DNA of 24,962 nucleotides from Candidatus Adiutrix sp. Its GTDB lineage: Bacteria; Desulfobacterota; Desulfarculia; Adiutricales; Adiutricaceae. A model generated the notes under the pieces. That model saw only the letters and a program-made list of their open reading frames with translations. It searched no databases and had not been told where the DNA came from. Of the stretch, positions 3,002-24,962 are shown piece after piece. The DNA lies in the NCBI GenBank assembly GCA_031285975.1, contig JAITVE010000311.1:1-24962 (forward strand). The letters are read 5' to 3'. The translations under genes were made by a program, and so were the position numbers. The first letter of the stretch is position 1, and every line of letters starts with the position of its first letter.

Positions 3002-4444
3002 TTACCGACGCAGAAAATCCAGGCTCTTCCCACACTGGCGGCAGCAATCGCGTAATATCGCCGCCCCCCGGGACATTTCCGCCTCGCTCAAATGGGCGTA
3101 GCCCAGGATGACTTCGTGAGCGTGAGCCCCGTCCCGGCACAGGGAATATGATTCCACGGGAACGACTTTGAGGCCGCGCGCGTACAGCTCGCCCACAACG
3201 TTTTCAGTAAAGGCGACTCCCGGGAACCCCGCCACCAGATGCAAACCCGCCGCCTGCCCCCTGATTTCAACATGACCGCCAAAGTTCTGCGACAAACAGC
3301 GCATCATGTGCTCACGTTTGCGCTTATACAGCTTTTTCATCTTCCAGGTATGCCGCTCAAGCCCGCCGCTGTTGATGAAGGCGGCCAGGGTGTGCTGCGA
3401 GAGCGCATCCGTGTGCACGTCAGTGTACATCTTTTCCGGCCTCCAGGCTGCCAGCATTCCCTCCGGTATTATGGCGAAACCAAGGCGTATGGCCGGGGCG
3501 AGAATTTTGCTGAAGGAGCCGAGGTAAATCACCGTATCCGGGGCGAGCTCATACAGCGAACTGACGGGCGGCCCTTCATAGCGGAACTCGCTGTCGTAGT
3601 CGTCTTCAACAATAAAACATTCCGTCTCATGGGCGAAGCGGATCAGAGTCTGCCGCCGCTGCACAGGAAGGATGCCGCCCAAGGGATACTGATGCGACGG
3701 GGTAACGTAGACGAACGCGACAGGCTGCCCCGCCTCAAGGCCCGCAGGCAGAGCGGCGCAGTCCATGCCAGAGGCGTCGGCCCGTATTCCCCGGACAGTG
3801 TGCCCGGCCCTGGCCACAACTTCCACAAGCCCGCGATGCACGGGGTCTTCCACCAGCACCAGGGAATTTTCCCGGCGCAGCAGTTGGGAAACAAGCCGCA
3901 GCCCCTGCGTGGAGCCGGAAGTGATCATGATGCGCTCAGGCATCGCGCGAATTCCGCGAACCCGGAAAAGGTAGGCGCTAAGCGCCTCCCGCAATTCCCA
4001 AACCCCAGCCGGTTCACAATACCGAAACGCGGAGGCGGGCAGCGCCTCACAAACCCGCTGGTACAACCGGCCCCATTCCTTTCGCGGAAACACGTCCATA
4101 TCCGGCATCCCGGAACGGAAATTGATAACCCGCCCGTCCGCTGTTTTGGAGGAAGAGGCCGCAACGGCTATTTGCGTCGGCCTCGCGGACAAGGCGCTGG
4201 CGGCGATGCCCCCGGCCACAGTTGTTCCAGACCCACGCCTCGCTTCCAGATAGCCCTCGGCCAGGAGCTGCTCATAGGCTTCAAGCACGGTGTTGCGGGC
4301 CACCCCCAGTTCTTTGCTGAACGCCCGGCTGGAAGGGAGCTTTTCCCCAGCCGCAAGGCCGCCAGAGAGGATGAGCGCCTTGACGCGCTCATAAATCTGC
4401 CTGTTCAGCGGCAAGCCGCTTTCCGCTTTCAGTTCAAGCCACAT
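3002..4444 (-). CDS. MocR/PdxR-type GntR regulator with aminotransferase-like domain
   Basis: The protein of about 480 residues has an N-terminal GntR winged helix (residues ~2-76: LPLNRQIYERVKALIL, GEKLPSSRAFSKELGVARNTV, YLEARRGSGT). A fold-type I aminotransferase domain follows, with the PLP lysine in YLGSFSKILAPAIRLGF (Lys ~313) and the Asp-containing VEDDYDSEFRYEG segment. MocR regulators bind PLP or a PLP adduct and usually control a divergent neighbour. Here that neighbour is the B3/B4-domain gene. I chose ATG at 4444 because GTGGGG lies 4-5 bases upstream; a TTG four codons earlier is possible. The ligand is unknown, and a vitamin B6 or amino-acid-derived signal is only a family-level expectation. 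Confidence 0.9.
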   Translation of the reverse strand: MWLELKAESGLPLNRQIYERVKALILSGGLAAGEKLPSSRAFSKELGVARNTVLEAYEQLLAEGYLEARRGSGTTVAGGIAASALSARPTQIAVAASSSKTADGRVINFRSGMPDMDVFPRKEWGRLYQRVCEALPASAFRYCEPAGVWELREALSAYLFRVRGIRAMPERIMITSGSTQGLRLVSQLLRRENSLVLVEDPVHRGLVEVVARAGHTVRGIRADASGMDCAALPAGLEAGQPVAFVYVTPSHQYPLGGILPVQRRQTLIRFAHETECFIVEDDYDSEFRYEGPPVSSLYELAPDTVIYLGSFSKILAPAIRLGFAIIPEGMLAAWRPEKMYTDVHTDALSQHTLAAFINSGGLERHTWKMKKLYKRKREHMMRCLSQNFGGHVEIRGQAAGLHLVAGFPGVAFTENVVGELYARGLKVVPVESYSLCRDGAHAHEVILGYAHLSEAEMSRGAAILRDCCRQCGKSLDFLRR

Positions 4445-5374: not shown

Positions 5375-8251
5375 TCACTCTTCGCCGTCTTTTTCGTCAT
5401 CACCCGCCAGAATGCGGATTTTGCGGCGCTGTTCGAAGGTGGCCATGCGGCTTTCCAGGGGCGCGGCCGACTCGGGGCTGTGCTTGGGACGTTTGAGGAA
5501 GAGCTTGAAACCGCCCGACTGTTCCTCGGGCTGCGGGGGCTCGTCTTCGTCGTCTTCGTCCATGGTTTGGAGCAGTTCCAGCGGCTCGTCGTCTTCATCG
5601 TCGGCCATGGGCTGGAGGAGCTCCAGCGGCTCGTCATCGTCATCATCATCCATGGTTTGGAGCAGTTCCAGCGGTTCCTCGTCGTCGTCATCGTCCATGG
5701 GCTGAAGGAGTTCCAGCGGCTCGTCGTCGTCTTCGTCAGCATCGTCGACCGGGCTGCCCAGGGTGATGACCGTTTCCGTCAGTTCCACAACCCCGTCGCC
5801 ATCGTCTTCGGCAAACTGGACGAGTTCCACCATGGCTTCGTCGTCGTCGTCATCTTCATCGTCGCCGAGGGGGGTGAGTTCCGGGAAATCGCCGTCGTCG
5901 TCGTCGCTGTCGTCGTCCGCCGTTTGCTGAAGCAGTTCCAGCGCCGTTTCATCAGGGCCGTCTTCGGGGAAGAGCGGCGCTGATGCAGGGGGAGCCGCCG
6001 GAGTGTCGGCGGGCTCATCCGCAGCCGCGTCCGCATAGCTGACAAAGCTGAGGGGCGGTTCTTCGGCTTTTTCCTCAGCCGCAGGGGGCGCGGCGGGGGT
6101 GAAGGTTGCGATGGGTTCCGGGGCCGGTTCCGGCTGGGGCGCGGGAGCCGCCGCCGGGGCCGGGGGGATGGGGGTCTCGCTCGTCCAGGCGATTTTCTGG
6201 TCGGCAGGGCGGCCTTCGTTGATGGTCTCCACAGTCAGGGCCATGACTTCCGGCAGACGGGCCTCCACGGCCTTTTCCAGGGCCGCGTCCACCTGCTCGG
6301 CCACAGCCTGGGCCAGAGCCGCCGGGAGGCGCTCGGCCACTTCGGCATTCAGGACGGGCGGCAGTTCGGCTTCCACGCGGGCCGCCAGGGCCTCGGGAAG
6401 CTGCACAGCCACGGCCTCGTCCAGGGCATGATCAAGGCGGGAGGAGACTTCCTCCATCAGCTTTTCAGGCAGCTGAATTTCCAGGGCCGTGTTCATGGCG
6501 TCCGGCAGGCGGTTTTCTATTTCCGTGGCCAAAGCCTTGGGGAGGCGGGCCTCCACTTCCTCGCGCAGGGTTTCGTCAATGCGGCGGGCCACCTCGGCCG
6601 CCAGGGCCTCGGGCAGGGCTTTTTGCACGGCGGCTTCCAGGGCCTCGGCCCGGTGCTCGCGCACGGCGACTTCCAGGGCGGCGGGCAATTCCTTTTCCAC
6701 GGCCACGGCCAGCACTTCTTCCTGCCGCCGCCGCAGTTCCTCGCGGGAGCCGGGGAATTCTTTTTCCACGGCCTCTTCCAGAGCCGCAGGCAGGCGCGTT
6801 GCCACTTCGGAGGCCAACAGGGGCGGAATCCGCAGTTCCACCTCGCCGCTCAAAATGCCGGGGAGGCGTTTATTGACCTCAATTTCCAGGGCGCGGGGAT
6901 AGTTTTCGGCCACGCGGCGCACCAGGAGTTCCGGCAATTTGGCCCGCACTTCGTCATTCAAAGCGTCCTGCAAATGGGCCTGCACTTCGGCCTTGAGGGC
7001 GGCGGGAGCACGTTTTTCCACCTCGGCCTTGAGCATATCCGGGATGCGCTTTTCCACCTCGGCGGACAGAATGTCCGGGAGTTTCAAATTCACTTCTTTG
7101 GCTAAAGCCTCGGGGAAGCGGGCCCAGACTTCGGTTTTCAGGGCTTCGGGCAGTTTGGCTTCCACCTTGGGGGCCAGGGCCGCCGGGAGTTCCTCGGTGA
7201 CGCGGGCGGCCAGGGCCTCGGGCAGGTGCTTTTCCACGGCCTCGGCCAGGGCCCCGGCGAATTTCGCGTCCACTTCCTTCAAAAGGGCCTGGGGCAGATA
7301 TTTTTCCACTTCCACGGCCAGGGCTTCGGGCAGCTTGTTGTCCACCGCCGAGGCCAGGGCGTAGGGCAGCCGGGTTTCCACCTTGATGGCCAGTTGCACC
7401 GGGAATTTGGCCTCCACCTTGGCGGCCAGGGCGGCCGGAAGGCGGGTCTCTATTTCCTGGGCCAGGGCTTTGTCCAACTCCTGGCGCAGGCTGTCGGCCA
7501 GCACTTGCGGGAGGCGGGCTTCCACTTCCTGGGCCAGGCGTTCGGGCAGGCGTTTTTTCACTTCCACGCCCAGCACTTCCGGCAATTTTTCCCGCACCGT
7601 GGCCCCCAGGGCCATGGGTAAACGCTCCTGCACGGCGGCGTTGAGGGCCGCCGGGAGTTCCAGGGCCACGGCCTGTTTGAGGGCCGCTTTTTTCTCGAAA
7701 TTATTCTTGATGGTTTCGCCCTCGGCCTTCTCCGGCAAGGAAAAACGGTTTTCTTCATCAAGAATCAAGTCAAAGAAGCGGCCGCGCAGGATGAGGCTCC
7801 GCACCATGCCGAGGATGAGCTGGCGGTAGGTGTCGGTGGTGAAGTCAAAGGTGAAATTGAGGGAGTCGAGGCTTTCAGCGGTCAGGTCGCCGCCGCCTTC
7901 GGGCTCAATGAACATCGGCAGGCCGTCCGTGTCCTTGAACATGCGCCGCCAGGCGGATGCGGGCAGCACCCCGCTGCGGACGGCCCCTTCCAGCATGGCG
8001 CGAAGCTCGGCCTGGAAGGCGGTGAGGTCGTCGAAGAGGTCGGCGTCGGGCAGGTGCTTTTGATAACGCTCAAAGAGGGGGCGGTCTTTGATATCGTGCT
8101 TCAAATTCAGGGAGGCCAGCACTTCCTGGTATTCGCGCCAGTTGATGAGGTAGCGCGGCACTTCCACCATAATGTCGCCGCTCACCGATTTGATGATGAC
8201 CTGGCTCAGTTCGAATTTGAAGTTTAGAAAGGCAATCAATTCTTTAGTCAT
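5375..8251 (-). CDS. Giant tandem-repeat protein with acidic tail, function unknown
   Basis: A protein of about 958 residues with four regions. Residues 1-198 form a domain I do not recognise (starts MTKELIAFLNFKFELSQ). Residues 199-677 are about 40 tandem 12-residue repeats with consensus LPxALxxxVxxR/K. Residues ~680-780 are a Pro/Ala/Glu-rich linker. Residues ~780-903 are strongly acidic and include four 15-residue EPLELLQ repeats. A short basic end with FKLFLKRPK and EQRRKIRIL follows. No signal peptide or membrane helix is apparent, so it is probably cytosolic. The repeats look like short amphipathic helices broken by proline and could form a long filament, scaffold or surface-binding rod. 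ATG 8251 was chosen because the translation before it is an unlikely basic stretch from GTG 8314; neither start has a strong Shine-Dalgarno sequence. It faces the B3/B4 gene and follows proA with a 0.2 kb gap. Confidence 0.85.
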   Translation of the reverse strand: MTKELIAFLNFKFELSQVIIKSVSGDIMVEVPRYLINWREYQEVLASLNLKHDIKDRPLFERYQKHLPDADLFDDLTAFQAELRAMLEGAVRSGVLPASAWRRMFKDTDGLPMFIEPEGGGDLTAESLDSLNFTFDFTTDTYRQLILGMVRSLILRGRFFDLILDEENRFSLPEKAEGETIKNNFEKKAALKQAVALELPAALNAAVQERLPMALGATVREKLPEVLGVEVKKRLPERLAQEVEARLPQVLADSLRQELDKALAQEIETRLPAALAAKVEAKFPVQLAIKVETRLPYALASAVDNKLPEALAVEVEKYLPQALLKEVDAKFAGALAEAVEKHLPEALAARVTEELPAALAPKVEAKLPEALKTEVWARFPEALAKEVNLKLPDILSAEVEKRIPDMLKAEVEKRAPAALKAEVQAHLQDALNDEVRAKLPELLVRRVAENYPRALEIEVNKRLPGILSGEVELRIPPLLASEVATRLPAALEEAVEKEFPGSREELRRRQEEVLAVAVEKELPAALEVAVREHRAEALEAAVQKALPEALAAEVARRIDETLREEVEARLPKALATEIENRLPDAMNTALEIQLPEKLMEEVSSRLDHALDEAVAVQLPEALAARVEAELPPVLNAEVAERLPAALAQAVAEQVDAALEKAVEARLPEVMALTVETINEGRPADQKIAWTSETPIPPAPAAAPAPQPEPAPEPIATFTPAAPPAAEEKAEEPPLSFVSYADAAADEPADTPAAPPASAPLFPEDGPDETALELLQQTADDDSDDDDGDFPELTPLGDDEDDDDDEAMVELVQFAEDDGDGVVELTETVITLGSPVDDADEDDDEPLELLQPMDDDDDEEPLELLQTMDDDDDDEPLELLQPMADDEDDEPLELLQTMDEDDEDEPPQPEEQSGGFKLFLKRPKHSPESAAPLESRMATFEQRRKIRILAGDDEKDGEE
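5543..5722 (-). repeat. Four tandem 45-bp units encoding acidic EPLELLQ repeats
   Basis: Four consecutive 15-residue units (residues 844-903 of the repeat protein) each read EPLELLQ, then P or T, M, and six acidic or near-acidic residues. P and T alternate at position 8 (P, T, P, T), which suggests that a two-unit block was duplicated. Two decayed relatives lie just upstream: ETALELLQQTADDDS and EAMVELVQFAEDDGD. In DNA the array appears as repeated tcgtcgtc tracts with ccatgg inside each unit. Confidence 0.9.
6221..7657 (-). repeat. About 40 tandem 36-bp units encoding the 12-residue LPxALxxxVxxx repeat
   Basis: Reading the translation in steps of 12 from residue 199 gives an almost unbroken register, for example LPEALAVEVEKY, LPEALAARVTEE, LPAALAPKVEAK, LPDILSAEVEKR. 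I count 40 units. The single register slip is at units 26-27, which include FPGSREELRRRQ and total 23 instead of 24 residues. Position 1 is mostly Leu (or Phe/Ile), position 2 mostly Pro, position 5 Leu, position 9 Val, and positions 10-12 charged. Units differ a good deal at the DNA level, so the array is old or under selection rather than a recent slippage product. Confidence 0.93.
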
Positions 8252-8460: not shown

Positions 8461-9711
8461 TTAACGAAGATGCCCATCGCCGCTGACGATGAAGCGGGTG
8501 GTGGTCAGTTCCCGCAAACCCATCGGCCCGTAAGCGTGGAGGCGGGTGGTGCTGATGCCGATTTCGGCCCCCAGGCCCAGGGCCCCGCCGTCGTTGAGGC
8601 GGGAGGAGGCGTTGACCATGACGCAGCCCGCCTCCACCTGGCGCAGGAAGCGGCCGGCGCGGCCTTTGTCCCGCGTGGCAATAACTTCAGTGTGGCGGGA
8701 GCCGCAGCGGGCAATATGCTCCAGGGCCGCGTCAAAATCCGCCACAACTTTAACCGCCAGGGTTAAGGCCAAAAACTCGCGGCCCCAGTCGTCGGCGGCG
8801 GCCGCCTCGGCCTGGGGCAGGAACTCTAGCGCGGCAGGGTCGGCTTTCAAGGTCACGCCCAGTTCGCGCAAACGCTCCCCGGCCAGGGGCAGGAAAGCCG
8901 GGGCTTCGTCCTGGTGGACGAGCAGGCACTCCAGGCTGTTGCAGGTGGAGGGCCGCTGGGTTTTGCCGTTGACGAGCAGGTTCAGGGCCATGTCCACATC
9001 CGCGCCCTGGTCTACGTAGAGGTGGCAGACCCCGCGAAAATGTTTCAGCACCGGGATGCGGCTGTGCTCGCTGACAAAGCGGATCAGCCCCTCCCCTCCC
9101 CTGGGGATGACCAGGTCAATGGTTTCGCTGAGGGTCAAGAGTTCTTTCAACTCGTCCTGTCCCAGGCTGGGGAGGACGGTGACAGCCTCGGGCCTCACCT
9201 CCGCCTCTGCCAGGGCTTCGGCGAAGATTTTTTGCAGCACGGCGGACGTTTGGGCCATTTCCTTGCCGCCCTTGACGATGAGGCCGTTGCCGCTTTTCAG
9301 GCATAAAGCCCCGGCCTCCACCACCGCGCCCGGGCGGGCCTCGCAGATAAAGGCTATGAGCCCCAGGGGGATGCGGAGGCGGCTCACTTCCAGACCGCTG
9401 TCCAGCACCCGTTCGTCTGAAATTTCCCCCACCGGGTCGGGCAAAGCCCGCACCTGGGCCACGGCCCGTGCCAGTTCGGCCACCCGGCTTTCGTTCAGGC
9501 TCAGGCGGTCGATCATATGCTCGGCCATGCCGCCCGCCCGCGCCGCCTCCGCATCGCGCCCGTTGGCCGCGAGAAGCTCCGCCGTGCTGGCCACGAGCCC
9601 GCTTTCCAGAGCCAACAGCAGGCGGTTTTTGAGTTCGGTATCAGCCAGGGCCACATCGCGGGAGGCTTGGGCTGCCCGCTCGGCCACGGTTTTGATGGAA
9701 AGAGTGTTCAT
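8461..9711 (-). CDS. proA: Glutamate-5-semialdehyde dehydrogenase (gamma-glutamyl phosphate reductase)
   Basis: Counted from ATG 9711, the protein has 416 residues, the usual ProA length. It reduces gamma-glutamyl phosphate to glutamate-5-semialdehyde with NADPH, the second step of proline synthesis in the cytosol. Visible family marks are PLGLIAFICEARPGAVVEAGALCLKSGN, the catalytic cysteine in QRPSTCNSLECLL (Cys257), and GLGAEIGISTTRLHAYGPMGL near the C-terminus. The partner kinase gene proB is not in this window. The gene follows rnj on the same strand. The frame stays open upstream for 64 more codons that encode two membrane helices (described separately), so a longer membrane-anchored form from GTG 9903 is possible. 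The Shine-Dalgarno before ATG 9711 (AGAGA) is moderate. Confidence 0.95.
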   Translation of the reverse strand: MNTLSIKTVAERAAQASRDVALADTELKNRLLLALESGLVASTAELLAANGRDAEAARAGGMAEHMIDRLSLNESRVAELARAVAQVRALPDPVGEISDERVLDSGLEVSRLRIPLGLIAFICEARPGAVVEAGALCLKSGNGLIVKGGKEMAQTSAVLQKIFAEALAEAEVRPEAVTVLPSLGQDELKELLTLSETIDLVIPRGGEGLIRFVSEHSRIPVLKHFRGVCHLYVDQGADVDMALNLLVNGKTQRPSTCNSLECLLVHQDEAPAFLPLAGERLRELGVTLKADPAALEFLPQAEAAAADDWGREFLALTLAVKVVADFDAALEHIARCGSRHTEVIATRDKGRAGRFLRQVEAGCVMVNASSRLNDGGALGLGAEIGISTTRLHAYGPMGLRELTTTRFIVSGDGHLR

Positions 9712-9903
9712 GGTTTTTCTCTGATGAAAAAATTCAAGCACTATGAAGGTTACAAAAACGGTCAGCAAACAGGCCCCAAAACGGACTAAAAAGGCAAGAT
9801 CAGTATACGATGCCAGCAACCCTCCAACAAGAGCGCCGGCTATGACGCTAAAAAAGAACTGAGCAGATTCCCGCTCTTCTGTTTTATCTCTTTGCAACGC
9901 CAC
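9712..9903 (-). other. In-frame N-terminal extension of proA encoding two membrane helices
   Basis: From GTG 9901-9903 an open frame of 64 codons runs straight into proA without a stop. AGAGG (complement of 9911-9915) lies 7 bases before the GTG, a better ribosome site than that of proA itself. The translation has a charged start (QRDKTEERES), two hydrophobic segments (FFFSVIAGALVGGLLASY and FGACLLTVFVTFIVLEFF) and then HQRKT before the ProA methionine. Base composition is lower in GC than in the surrounding genes. It could be a small two-helix membrane protein fused to ProA, an upstream small gene that has lost its stop, or a chance open frame. Confidence 0.5.
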
Positions 9904-22766: not shown

Positions 22767-22795
22767 TGGAAATTAGCCGCGAAAAATGCTATGCT
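22767..22795 (+). promoter_or_regulatory. Possible promoter of the AT-rich membrane-protein gene
   Basis: TGGAAA (22767-22772) and TATGCT (22790-22795) are 17 bases apart and each match four of six consensus positions. The site lies at the sharp change from GC-rich to AT-rich DNA, about 40 bases before the preferred ATG at 22834. Confidence 0.35.
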
Positions 22796-22833
22796 GTCCG
22801 CATACCGCACATCAGAAATGGCGAAAAAAGCGT

Positions 22834-23733
22834 ATGCAACGATCAGCTTATTGTCAAGATTGCCACAACTGCAAAGACTTCAACTCAAAGGAAGCCTATA
22901 ATTGGGAACGCAAGCCAAGCCGTTATGTGCCGTCAGGCAGGTATCCGCAATATGGGTTGGCGGGCCTTGTTTTTGCCAGTTTTTGCATCGGACTAGTTAC
23001 AACATTTTTATATAGTATTGCCTCTCCGCTCACAAACATAGGTAATGAGCTAGTAGATGTCCTTACAGGTTGCTGGATTCTTGTGAGCATAATTATTTGG
23101 ATTTTTTTGTCTTATAAGTTTTACCGAGTGGCTGTCAAGGTTCTTAAAATAAGATGGCCTTTAATGGCTGGCATCTGTACCTTTGCAGGCCTTATCGTTG
23201 GGTATTTAACAGCGTGGGGTTTAACAAAATATGTAAATAAATCCCCACTGGACTTTTGGTCTTTTTTGATGAATGCTCATAAAACTACTGCATGGACTTA
23301 TATAGAGGTGATTTTATATTCAATTATCGTCATCTATGGTGCAGTCACACAAAGCCAGTTGCCTTTTAGTGAAGATAGAAACAGATGGTATAAGAGAATC
23401 GGCTTACTGCCTGTTTTTGTGCCGTATAAATATGTGTGGGCAATGAATACTGTCATTTTTACTGGAGACTACCGAAAATTGCTCTATTGCTCAATTTATA
23501 AGTATTGGAACCATTCAGCATTTTACAAATATATAAGCAATATCACCGTTTTCATACATTTTGCACTGGGTTGGTCACTGTATAAAATATTCATTTATCA
23601 TGATCGGGATAGCGACTCATGTTATTTAGCATATTGGAAAAGTGATATTATGGGGGAATTTGTCTCATTTAACAATTATACCGTTCCCAGAAAGTATGCC
23701 AAGGCTTTATATAAAAAGCTGAGGCAATATTGA
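22834..23733 (+). CDS. Unknown multi-pass membrane protein, AT-rich
   Basis: From ATG 22834 the protein has about 299 residues. It starts with a Cys motif (CQDCHNC) that may bind metal. Four or five hydrophobic helices follow (GLAGLVFASFCIGLVTTF, CWILVSIIIWIFLSY, MAGICTFAGLIVGYL, YIEVILYSIIVIYGAV, ITVFIHFALGW). The second half is Tyr/Lys/Trp-rich. I recognise no family. Base composition is strikingly AT-rich compared with everything to its left, and it stands next to tRNA genes and an integrase, which suggests horizontal origin. The start is uncertain: an ATG at 22786 is in frame but overlaps the possible -10 box, and neither start has a strong ribosome site. Confidence 0.75.
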   Translation: MQRSAYCQDCHNCKDFNSKEAYNWERKPSRYVPSGRYPQYGLAGLVFASFCIGLVTTFLYSIASPLTNIGNELVDVLTGCWILVSIIIWIFLSYKFYRVAVKVLKIRWPLMAGICTFAGLIVGYLTAWGLTKYVNKSPLDFWSFLMNAHKTTAWTYIEVILYSIIVIYGAVTQSQLPFSEDRNRWYKRIGLLPVFVPYKYVWAMNTVIFTGDYRKLLYCSIYKYWNHSAFYKYISNITVFIHFALGWSLYKIFIYHDRDSDSCYLAYWKSDIMGEFVSFNNYTVPRKYAKALYKKLRQY

Positions 23734-23834
23734 GGAAGAACACGGCAGCCGCTAACTACATTTGCTACAAGGGGTGCCTTGGGGCTTACGTTCAGGGCAA
23801 GGCCAGCCGCCAGCAAAGAAGTTGCGAATAATGC
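23734..23834. other. Non-coding gap before the tRNA promoter
   Basis: The 100 bases between the AT-rich gene and the tRNA promoter return to mixed GC content. I see no clear terminator hairpin or gene. A 63-codon minus-strand frame crosses it and the tRNA promoter but lacks a ribosome site and family similarity. Confidence 0.4.
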
Positions 23835-23862
23835 TTGACTTTCAGACGAAATGGTATATACT
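23835..23862 (+). promoter_or_regulatory. Promoter of the tandem tRNA-Ser genes
   Basis: TTGACT (23835-23840) and TATACT (23857-23862) are 16 bases apart, both matching five of six consensus positions. Transcription should begin about 40 bases before the first tRNA, and one transcript can cover both tRNAs up to the terminator at 24155-24192. Confidence 0.75.
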
Positions 23863-23909
23863 TTCAAAGTTAATTTGCCATCTCAAGCAATCTGGGGTGC
23901 ATGACAACC

Positions 23910-23995
23910 GGAGGGATGGCCGAGTGGCTTAAGGCGGCGGTCTTGAAAACCGTTGAACGAAAGTTCCGTGGGTTCAAATCCTACTCCCTCCGCCA
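23910..23995 (+). tRNA. tRNA-Ser (anticodon UGA)
   Basis: The acceptor arms GGAGGGA (23910-23916) and TCCCTCC (23985-23991) pair fully, followed by G and an encoded CCA (23993-23995). The anticodon loop CTTGAAA places TGA at 23944-23946, reading UCA and related serine codons. A long variable arm and the GTTCAAATC T-loop fit a class II serine tRNA. Confidence 0.96.
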
Positions 23996-24021
23996 TAGAT
24001 TAGCTGTTCACAACCAAAGTC

Positions 24022-24114
24022 GGAGAGATGACCGAGAGGCCGAAGGTGCTCGCCTGCTAAGCGAGTGTGGGGCGTAAAACTCCACCGAGGGTTCGAATCC
24101 CTCTCTCTCCGCCA
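24022..24114 (+). tRNA. tRNA-Ser (anticodon GCU)
   Basis: The acceptor arms GGAGAGA (24022-24028) and TCTCTCC (24104-24110) pair, with G and an encoded CCA at 24112-24114. The anticodon stem CTCGC/GCGAG encloses CTGCTAA, giving GCT at 24056-24058 for AGC/AGU codons. It has a long variable arm and a GTTCGAATC T-loop. Its 3' end borders the integrase-bearing element, so it is the probable integration site. Confidence 0.96.
24096..24114 (+). other. Probable left attachment site in the tRNA-Ser 3' end
   Basis: P4-type integrases usually insert into the 3' half of a tRNA gene and leave that end intact next to the integrase gene. The first integrase codon is about 200 bases after this tRNA and points away from it, the expected arrangement. 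The second copy of the site, which would prove it, lies outside the window, so the exact core and its length are unknown. Confidence 0.4.
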
Positions 24115-24154
24115 GATTATTTTTATTTATCGTCCCATACTATCCATTTTAAAG

Positions 24155-24192
24155 CCTGCAAAGCCATATAAATCAAAGCTTTGCGGGTTTTT
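24155..24192 (+). terminator. Rho-independent terminator after the tRNA-Ser pair
   Basis: CCTGCAAAGC (24155-24164) pairs with GCTTTGCGGG (24178-24187), with one G-U pair and a 13-base loop, followed by TTTTTC. It ends the tandem tRNA transcript. Being to the right of the tRNA 3' end, it may belong to the integrated element. Confidence 0.75.
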
Positions 24193-24220
24193 CTTTACCT
24201 GTATCGTCACATTCCGCCCC

Positions 24221-24249
24221 TTGACATCACGATAAAAAAGAGGTAACAA
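24221..24249 (+). promoter_or_regulatory. Integrase promoter
   Basis: A perfect TTGACA (24221-24226) is followed after 17 bases by TAACAA (24244-24249). The -10 region overlaps the first GAGGTAAC repeat (24240-24247), so a protein bound to the repeats would block transcription. The leader to the integrase ATG is about 60 bases. Confidence 0.55.
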
Positions 24250-24297
24250 AAGAGGTGTCAGCCTTTGCTGTGGAGGTAACAGTATTTTGGAGGTAAC
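24240..24297 (+). repeat. Direct repeats GAGGTAAC upstream of the integrase
   Basis: GAGGTAAC occurs at 24240-24247, 24273-24280 and 24290-24297, with a variant GAGGTGTC at 24252-24259. Start-to-start distances are 12, 21 and 17 bases. Short direct repeats between the attachment site and the integrase gene are typical arm-type integrase binding sites; the placement also covers the integrase promoter and leader. The role is inferred from position. Confidence 0.6.
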
Positions 24298-24312
24298 GGA
24301 AGGGGGCTTTTT

Positions 24313-24962
24313 ATGAACAAAGACTCAAACCCGGCCAGCCGCAGAAAGAAAAACGGTCACGGCCTGACAGACGTTGAAATCCGGGCTTTGAAACCCACCA
24401 GCGGCGCAAAAGGCGAACTGGTCAGAAAACGCTATCCTGACGGCAACGGTCTCTTTTTGGTGGTTGGCCCCACCGGGTCAAAGTGGTGGGAATACCGCTT
24501 CGCCTTTGAAGGGAAAAAGACCGGCATTGGCCTTGGAACCTATCCAGTTATTACCCTGGCGGTGGCCCGTGAAAAACACCTTGCGGCCAGGCGGGAACTT
24601 GCGGAGGGGCGCAACCCGGCCGCCACGGGGAAAAAGGCTCTATTGGGAGCCGCCAAGGAGAAAGCCGCTTCTGAAGCCGCCGAAGCCTCAGCCGGGGCTC
24701 TGACCTTCGCCAGTTTGGCCGAGTCCTGGCTTGAGAGCCGAGATAAAAACGGCATAAAGCGTGTAGAGGAAACGCGGGGTCGACTTAAAAATCATGTTTT
24801 CCCCACCTTGGGCAATGTTCCCATAAAAGATATTTCAGCCGCTAAGGTATTGGAAGCCATTCTGGCGATTAAAGCCAAGGGGCTGGAAGAAATGGCCAAA
24901 CGCTGTCTTTCCTGTATTCGGCAGATTTTTAATTACGCCATAATCCGGGAGTGGGCCGACCG
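24313..24962 (+). CDS. P4-type tyrosine integrase, N-terminal part
   Basis: The frame starts at ATG 24313 behind GGAAGGGGG and runs off the right edge after 216 codons. Residues ~18-105 form the arm DNA-binding domain (DUF4102-like: LTDVEIRALKP, YPDGNGLFLVV, WWEYRFAF, IGLGTYPVITLAVAREK). An Ala/Lys-rich linker follows, then the SAM-like core-binding domain from about residue 130 (TFASLAESWLESR, RLKNHVFPTLGNVPIKDI, RQIFNYAI). The catalytic tyrosine-recombinase domain lies outside the window. It should integrate and, with a directionality factor, excise the element at tRNA-Ser. The nearby repeats may let it control its own promoter. Whether the gene is intact cannot be seen. Confidence 0.93.
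   Translation, partial: MNKDSNPASRRKKNGHGLTDVEIRALKPTSGAKGELVRKRYPDGNGLFLVVGPTGSKWWEYRFAFEGKKTGIGLGTYPVITLAVAREKHLAARRELAEGRNPAATGKKALLGAAKEKAASEAAEASAGALTFASLAESWLESRDKNGIKRVEETRGRLKNHVFPTLGNVPIKDISAAKVLEAILAIKAKGLEEMAKRCLSCIRQIFNYAIIREWAD

What the first reader, a model, noticed from the sequence alone, without database searches (positions are those of the whole stretch)
5375..8251. Giant protein built from about 40 tandem 12-residue LPxALxxxVxxx repeats
The sequence directly shows an unbroken 12-residue register over about 480 residues with a single slip, behind an unrecognised 200-residue domain. Hydrophobic positions 1, 5 and 9 are spaced by four, and a proline sits at position 2 of most units. 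This is unlike the common heptad coiled coil or the 34-residue helical repeats. The closest idea I can offer is a proline-punctuated amphipathic helix such as in apolipoproteins, but those use 11- or 22-residue units. A cytosolic filament, ruler or membrane-surface scaffold would fit. I know of no named family with this layout.
Basis: partly seen in the sequence, partly recalled or inferred. Interest (0 to 1): 0.8.

Follow-up and report, generated by a model that had tools for sequence, protein, structure and literature searches.

The report
Symbiont protein with 12-residue helical repeats
In a group of insect-gut bacteria a long protein pairs the head of a zinc-finger-type regulator, without its finger, with a conserved tail motif, and in one genus the stretch between them was filled with about 40 copies of a 12-residue repeat that probably forms a long helical spacer.

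Summary
Window 5375-8251 (minus strand) encodes 958 aa with 40 units of LPxALxxxVxxx (residues 188-678) and one register slip. The context is the surprise. The first ~175 residues are a domain found in 26 of 37 genomes of the window's family. In the sister family f3 (2 of 2 genomes) the same domain carries a CGNR zinc finger; in the window's family the finger is absent (0 of 37) and acidic tails follow. All 14 complete proteins read here end in a motif like ExxLATLEQR. Only the genus of Candidatus Adiutrix has the 12-residue array (6 of 7 genomes, one gene each). In 5 of those 6 proteins two landmarks lie exactly 205 residues apart and the same slip recurs, which argues against freely slipping low-complexity sequence. 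AlphaFold gives a confident head (pLDDT 89) and, at low confidence, a nearly continuous helix for the array. Best reading, function inferred: a cytoplasmic tether or scaffold whose array is an amphipathic helical spacer. Membership of ABATE, PopZ, DUF445 or apolipoproteins is not established.

The parts
5375..8251 (-). whole coding sequence, 958 aa
   Evidence: translation; homologues start at the same ATG-type position
7736..8251 (-). N-terminal head domain, residues 1-172, shared with CGNR zinc-finger proteins of the sister family
   Evidence: 26 of 37 family genomes; f3 homologues with PF11706; model pLDDT 89.1
7739..7765 (-). residues 163-171, short hairpin where the f3 homologues have the zinc knuckle; no cysteines here
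   Evidence: alignment A1 (no Cys at these two columns in 13 of 13 family rows); DSSP string of the model
6218..7690 (-). 12-residue repeat array, residues 188-678, 40 units
   Evidence: present in 6 of 7 genomes of the genus
7355..7369 (-). landmark LPYAL, residues 295-299
   Evidence: 205 residues before the slip unit in 5 of 6 array-bearing proteins
6722..6754 (-). slip unit, residues 500-510, 11 residues instead of 12
   Evidence: same slip in the window and 4 relatives; one of the helix breaks of the model lies at 499-501
5378..6217 (-). acidic, proline-containing tail, residues 679-958
   Evidence: 33% Asp+Glu, 14% Pro and net charge per residue -0.28
5561..5728 (-). four acidic DDEPLELLQ-type motifs spaced 15 residues apart
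5426..5455 (-). C-terminal motif ESRMATFEQR, residues 933-942
   Evidence: pattern found in 14 of 14 complete family proteins read

Best explanation
A cytoplasmic tether or scaffold with two constant ends and a variable middle. Shown: the head is homologous to the N-terminal domain of CGNR zinc-finger proteins of the sister family, and the finger is not found in the window's family; all complete members read here end in a conserved ExxLATLEQR-like motif; between the ends lie 172 to 1428 residues of acidic sequence; in the genus of Candidatus Adiutrix a regular 12-residue array was added, with a 205-residue spacing between landmarks and a shared one-residue slip in 5 of 6. Inferred: an ancestral regulator lost its finger and with it DNA binding, and kept its head as a dimerising or ligand-binding unit; the C-terminal motif and the DDEPLLL-like motifs dock partners; the array forms a long amphipathic helix (up to about 74 nm if straight: 492 residues x 0.15 nm), kinked at the slip, whose leucine-valine stripe pairs with itself or with another helix and makes the spacer stiffer and multivalent.
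For: Head in 26 of 37 family genomes, always in frames of 406 aa or more, some cut by contig ends. Same head with PF11706 finger in f3; finger in 0 of 37 family genomes. C-terminal motif in 14 of 14 complete proteins, never in 200 shuffles of each tail. Tails acidic in 20 of 20 measured, net charge per residue -0.07 to -0.30. Array only in this genus, 6 of 7 genomes (3 of 297 in a phylum sample, same genus). Landmark spacing 205 and shared slip in 5 of 6. Codon agreement between units at the level of usage for unit lags 2, 3, 5 and 10, so most duplications are old. Helix predicted over 177-678.
Against: No partner, location or phenotype is known; tethering is read from layout alone. Array model is low confidence (mean pLDDT 60.2, pTM 0.31) and has breaks elsewhere than at the slip; strict four-residue spacing drifts around an ideal alpha helix. 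Smac51 lacks both landmarks and Kf353 lacks the array. Exposed positions support unit-by-unit orthology only weakly: in-register identity 0.332 against 0.22-0.30, best of 15 registers in 4 of 10 pairs. Neighbouring units share codons a little more than expected (112 against 98.7 of 179).
Confidence: 0.45

Rival explanations
1. Membrane-surface coat: the array works like an apolipoprotein, 12-residue amphipathic helices lying on a membrane and prolines letting the chain bend.
For: Amphipathic, proline in most units; hydrophobic moment peaks near 90 degrees in 18-residue stretches within the helical range.
Against: Unit is 12, not 11 or 22. Array net charge is slightly negative, -0.03 to -0.09 in five arrays, not the positive charge expected for binding anionic bacterial membranes (recalled rule). 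No apolipoprotein family among Pfam matches at E up to 1.
Confidence: 0.2
2. Tolerated filler: the middle of the protein is free to change, and the array is one of several repeat expansions with no function beyond length.
For: Tails vary from 172 to 1428 residues; other tails carry their own short repeats, e.g. 13-residue spacing in L033 and 19-residue in L039; Kf353 lacks the array.
Against: Landmark spacing and slip shared by 5 of 6; core residues kept while codon memory is mostly gone.
Confidence: 0.15
3. Condensate hub that works like PopZ: acidic proline-bearing disordered part sets fluidity, helical part drives self-association.
For: Tail net charge per residue -0.28 with 14% Pro; PopZ linker -0.28 with 29% Pro (PMC9512792, passages). 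A short acidic motif in a PopZ relative (L086) resembles the family's.
Against: 12-mer score of three PopZ relatives not above shuffles (99, 361 and 213 of 500 shuffles as high); DUF2497 not among Pfam matches; order of parts is reversed.
Confidence: 0.12
4. Type III secreted effector of an insect-gut symbiont.
For: In one genus (L030, L032, L034) two genes upstream, one matching the CesT chaperone family (E 9.2e-10, tested in L034 only).
Against: No association with type III secretins over the cut-off: gene and secretin 7, gene only 19, secretin only 3, neither 8, of 37 genomes, some incomplete; the three genomes with the CesT-like neighbour have none over the cut-off.
Confidence: 0.03

Closest known systems
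ABATE-CGNR proteins (PF07336 + PF11706; Jann_2411, PDB 3h0n, PMC2954205)
   Same: The f3 homologues of this head carry the CGNR finger; whole f3 proteins align with eight ABATE-CGNR proteins at 97.9% probability over 153 columns. Order of helices and strands in the head model equals the order described for 3h0n.
   Different: No finger in the window's family; head alone not recognised as ABATE by Pfam, by profile comparison (0.7%) or, in the 50 rows shown, by Foldseek. Long tail and array absent from ABATE proteins of about 180 residues.
Apolipoprotein-type proline-punctuated amphipathic repeats
   Same: Amphipathic, helical prediction, proline at a fixed place in most units.
   Different: 12-residue unit, hydrophobic every fourth residue; no sequence match.
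PopZ (DUF2497)
   Same: Acidic proline-containing disordered part plus helical part.
   Different: No detectable homology, reversed order of parts, 12-mer similarity not above chance.
DUF445 (PF04286)
   Same: One of three arrays searched (L024) scores over Pfam's cut-off (43.8 against 33.8 bits); weak four-residue hydrophobic spacing in some true members.
   Different: Six true members read have no strong 12-residue identity (highest self-identity 0.11, in one of them at lag 12, against 0.385 here).

Membership tests
ABATE domain (PF07336) | match to the Pfam or profile model | tested here: not met
   head alone: 0 families at E up to 10; head profile against 8 ABATE domains 0.7%
ABATE domain (PF07336) | fold: helix-hairpin-helix twice with two linking helices | tested here: inconclusive
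   same order of elements in a model of pLDDT 89.1 as described in PMC2954205, but Foldseek best E 0.61 and 3h0n not in the 50 rows shown of 209; the second aligner was not available
CGNR zinc-finger proteins | CGNR treble-clef finger after the head | tested here: not met
   0 of 37 family genomes; met in the two f3 homologues
Apolipoprotein-type repeat | 11- or 22-residue unit | tested here: not met
   lag 11 0.074, lag 22 0.083, lag 12 0.375
Apolipoprotein-type repeat | lipid binding | not testable with these tools
   needs a liposome assay
PopZ (DUF2497) | DUF2497 C-terminal domain | tested here: not met
   not among Pfam matches; 12-mer score in three relatives at shuffle level
PopZ (DUF2497) | acidic, proline-rich disordered linker | tested here: inconclusive
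   net charge -0.28 equal to PopZ's, proline 14% against 29%; disorder itself not measured
DUF445 (PF04286) | match over the curated cut-off | tested here: inconclusive
   L024 array over (43.8), L022 under (30.5), window array not listed; whole L025 under (22.2)
Type III effector | occurs together with a type III secretion system | tested here: not met
   7/19/3/8 of 37 genomes

The most novel reading that the evidence does not exclude
A new kind of structural repeat: a 12-residue, four-spaced, proline-punctuated helix with one conserved skip that builds a rod of set length (tens of nanometres) between a head taken from a zinc-finger regulator and a conserved docking motif, acting as a molecular spacer or ruler in insect-gut symbionts.
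Probability: 0.3. Interest if true: 0.75.

Novelty: new variant of a known kind. Interest (0 to 1): 0.5.

Why it matters
It suggests a DNA-binding-type regulator turned, within one bacterial order, into a long tethering protein: finger lost, tail gained, both ends kept. It also offers a natural, very regular helical repeat that fits neither the heptad nor the 11-residue rule and has a shared skip. If it folds as a rod, it would be a simple design for spacers of defined length and a direct test of how proline-bearing helices with four-residue spacing pack.

Tried and rejected
Pfam matches on the array were judged composition matches: POTRA_1 (window array E 1.5e-7, 32.0 bits; L022 36.6 bits; both over the cut-off of 23; L024 under) covers only half of the model and three or four units; DUF445 is over its cut-off in one of three arrays, and six genuine DUF445 proteins lack the repeat (in one search my script picked the wrong frame for L080, L071 and L074, so these three are not counted). 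PopZ likeness was followed because a PopZ sequence recalled from memory ends in a similar LP-type helix; real family members scored at shuffle level. A type III effector was set aside on co-occurrence. Phage origin: no match in the phage collection. PDB by sequence: window head none at E up to 10, head profile best E 0.13, a designed protein, array profile best E 0.4; the CGNR-bearing homologue reaches 3h0n only at E 0.054, through the finger, equal with an unrelated zinc finger. PDB by fold: best E 0.86 (array plus head) and 0.61 (head). Literature, search listings only: 12-residue, 12-mer, dodecapeptide and dodecad repeats (23 papers), Adiutrix (15 of 39 papers listed), CGNR zinc finger (4 papers), apolipoprotein-like bacterial repeats (1 paper), Adiutrix with repeat or scaffold words (terms too common to inform). 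No title or abstract beginning described this protein; only open-licence PubMed Central papers are held, so this is no proof of absence. Read: PMC2954205 in three of four parts, PMC9512792 in passages.

Full report
What is there. Window 5375-8251, minus strand, encodes one 958-residue protein. Residues 188-678 are 40 units of twelve residues, L-P-x-A-L-x-x-x-V-x-x-x, in blocks of 26 and 14 separated by an 11-residue unit. Self-identity peaks at multiples of 12 (0.375, 0.357, 0.343), far above 1000 shuffles (maximum 0.167). Every fourth residue tends to be hydrophobic (autocorrelation 0.63-0.70 at lags 4 to 24). After the array come 280 residues with 33% Asp+Glu and 14% Pro, including four acidic motifs 15 residues apart, and near the end ESRMATFEQR.

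Whose it is. That Adiutrix lives in termite guts and flagellates is recalled. Gene order in the six relatives: lepA and RNase J lie on one side in five (L021-L025), proA between them and the gene in three (L022, L024, L025), DUF1178 on the other side in five (L021, L022, L024-L026), a GGDEF gene beyond it in four (L022, L024-L026); Kf353 (L026) has 7 kb upstream without lepA, RNase J or proA, and L023 ends inside the gene.

The head. A profile of 15 heads finds 26 of 37 genomes of the family (11 of 12 of good quality), always in frames of 406 aa or more, some cut by contig ends. In the class it finds besides only the two genomes of family f3 (28 of 63 in all); in a sample of 395 genomes of the phylum, at E up to 1e-5, only members of the window's family (7). 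In f3 the frame is 232-238 aa and the head is followed by a CGNR zinc finger (PF11706, E 4e-12 and 6e-11); none of the 37 family genomes has this finger. At the columns of the two knuckle cysteines of f3, none of 13 family rows has cysteine. A tree of 15 heads separates the two f3 heads from the family at 100/100 and joins the genus at 91/85, with Kf353 (no array) beside Smac51 at 95/96, so one gain of the array in the genus and one loss is the simplest story (midpoint root). The 178-residue model is confident (pLDDT 89.1, pTM 0.83), and its elements, including a short helix and a two-residue hairpin at the end, follow the order described for the ABATE-CGNR structure 3h0n (PMC2954205, parts 1-3 of 4). 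Against ABATE membership: no Pfam match, profile-profile probability 0.7% for the head alone (with the finger included the f3 proteins reach 97.9%), no significant Foldseek match (best E 0.61). I therefore call it the head of a CGNR-type protein, not an ABATE domain.

The constant end. Of the 26 family proteins located, 21 were read (including the window's); 5 were not fetched. Fourteen of the 21 end inside their contig and all 14 carry the C-terminal motif, 19-55 residues from the end; the 7 cut by contig ends lack it; it never arose in 200 shuffles of each tail (the pattern was written after looking at these ends). A second, looser motif, DDEPLLLTE or alike, matched a strict pattern in 11 of 21 and a looser one in 14 of 21. 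Among open frames of 120 aa or more in 22 loci and the window a related pattern turned up only in this family; it did not match the window's own variant. The tails are acidic in 20 of 20 measured.

The array. It is present in 6 of 37 genomes of the family, all of this genus and each in this gene, and in 3 of 297 of a phylum sample, the same genus (both at E up to 1e-6). Counts: window 40, L022 40, L024 43, L021 33, L023 25 (cut by contig end), Smac51 25, Kf353 none; 0-2 in the other 16 proteins, the shuffle level. LPYAL and the slip unit lie 205 residues apart in the window protein and four relatives (L021-L024), and the block structure shows the same slip there, 11 residues (in L023 an 11 plus 12 gap); Smac51 has neither landmark; L021 has a further slip behind. 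After the slip the numbers of units differ. With the first two units and the slip left out, exposed positions agree 0.332 in register and 0.22-0.30 when shifted by one to seven units; the true register is the best of 15 in only 4 of 10 pairs and core positions do not discriminate, so orthology of single units is suggestive only. Codon agreement between units is as expected from usage except between neighbours (112 against 98.7 of 179). AlphaFold draws helix over 177-678 with five breaks, one at 499-501, at low confidence (mean pLDDT 60.2).

How it may work. Two constant ends and a free middle are the mark of a tether: a folded head, a short docking motif at the far end, and a spacer that sets reach, charge and stiffness. 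Losing the finger argues against DNA binding. In Adiutrix the array would add a semi-rigid helical part, about 74 nm if straight. Whether its leucine-valine stripe meets another helix, itself or a membrane cannot be decided from sequence. Neighbouring genes do not help: other genera have a convergent group with two radical-SAM enzymes, an M99 peptidase and an L,D-transpeptidase, one genus has a CesT-like gene upstream, and type III secretion does not follow the gene.

Verdict. Real, regular, conserved in most of the genus, and without a trustworthy match in the Pfam, NCBIfam and PDB searches made here, although POTRA_1 and DUF445 exceed Pfam's cut-offs on parts of some arrays. The protein family is a new variant of a known kind (CGNR-type head without its finger); the repeat itself may be new. 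Function is inferred.

Noticed in passing
L034:2711-3142 and 3666-4139 (same gene groups in L030 and L032): Two genes upstream of the homologue in one genus; the first matches the CesT (type III chaperone) family at E 9.2e-10, the second has no Pfam match; the three genomes have no type III secretin over the cut-off.
   Followed up: partly
L034:8835-15841; related groups in L027, L029, L030, L031, L037, L041: A convergent group beside the homologue in several other genera: SPASM and UPF0004 radical-SAM enzymes, an M99 (helical cell shape) peptidase and a YkuD/Cds6-type L,D-transpeptidase.
   Followed up: partly
window 22786-24962: GC falls to 0.395 at 23001-24000, with two tRNA-Ser genes (23910-24114) followed by an integrase start (24313-24960): the edge of an integrated element.
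   Followed up: no
L033:12988-14595, L039:2011-3228, L035:13872-16835: Tails of other genera carry their own short acidic repeats, at 13-residue spacing in L033 and 19-residue in L039, so repeat growth in this tail seems recurrent.
   Followed up: partly
window 8461-9903: The proA frame has 68 residues before the family match starts, including a hydrophobic stretch; either a mis-set start or a membrane extension.
   Followed up: no
family genomes: Type III secretins over the curated cut-off occur in 10 of 37 genomes of this family, scattered over several genera.
   Followed up: no
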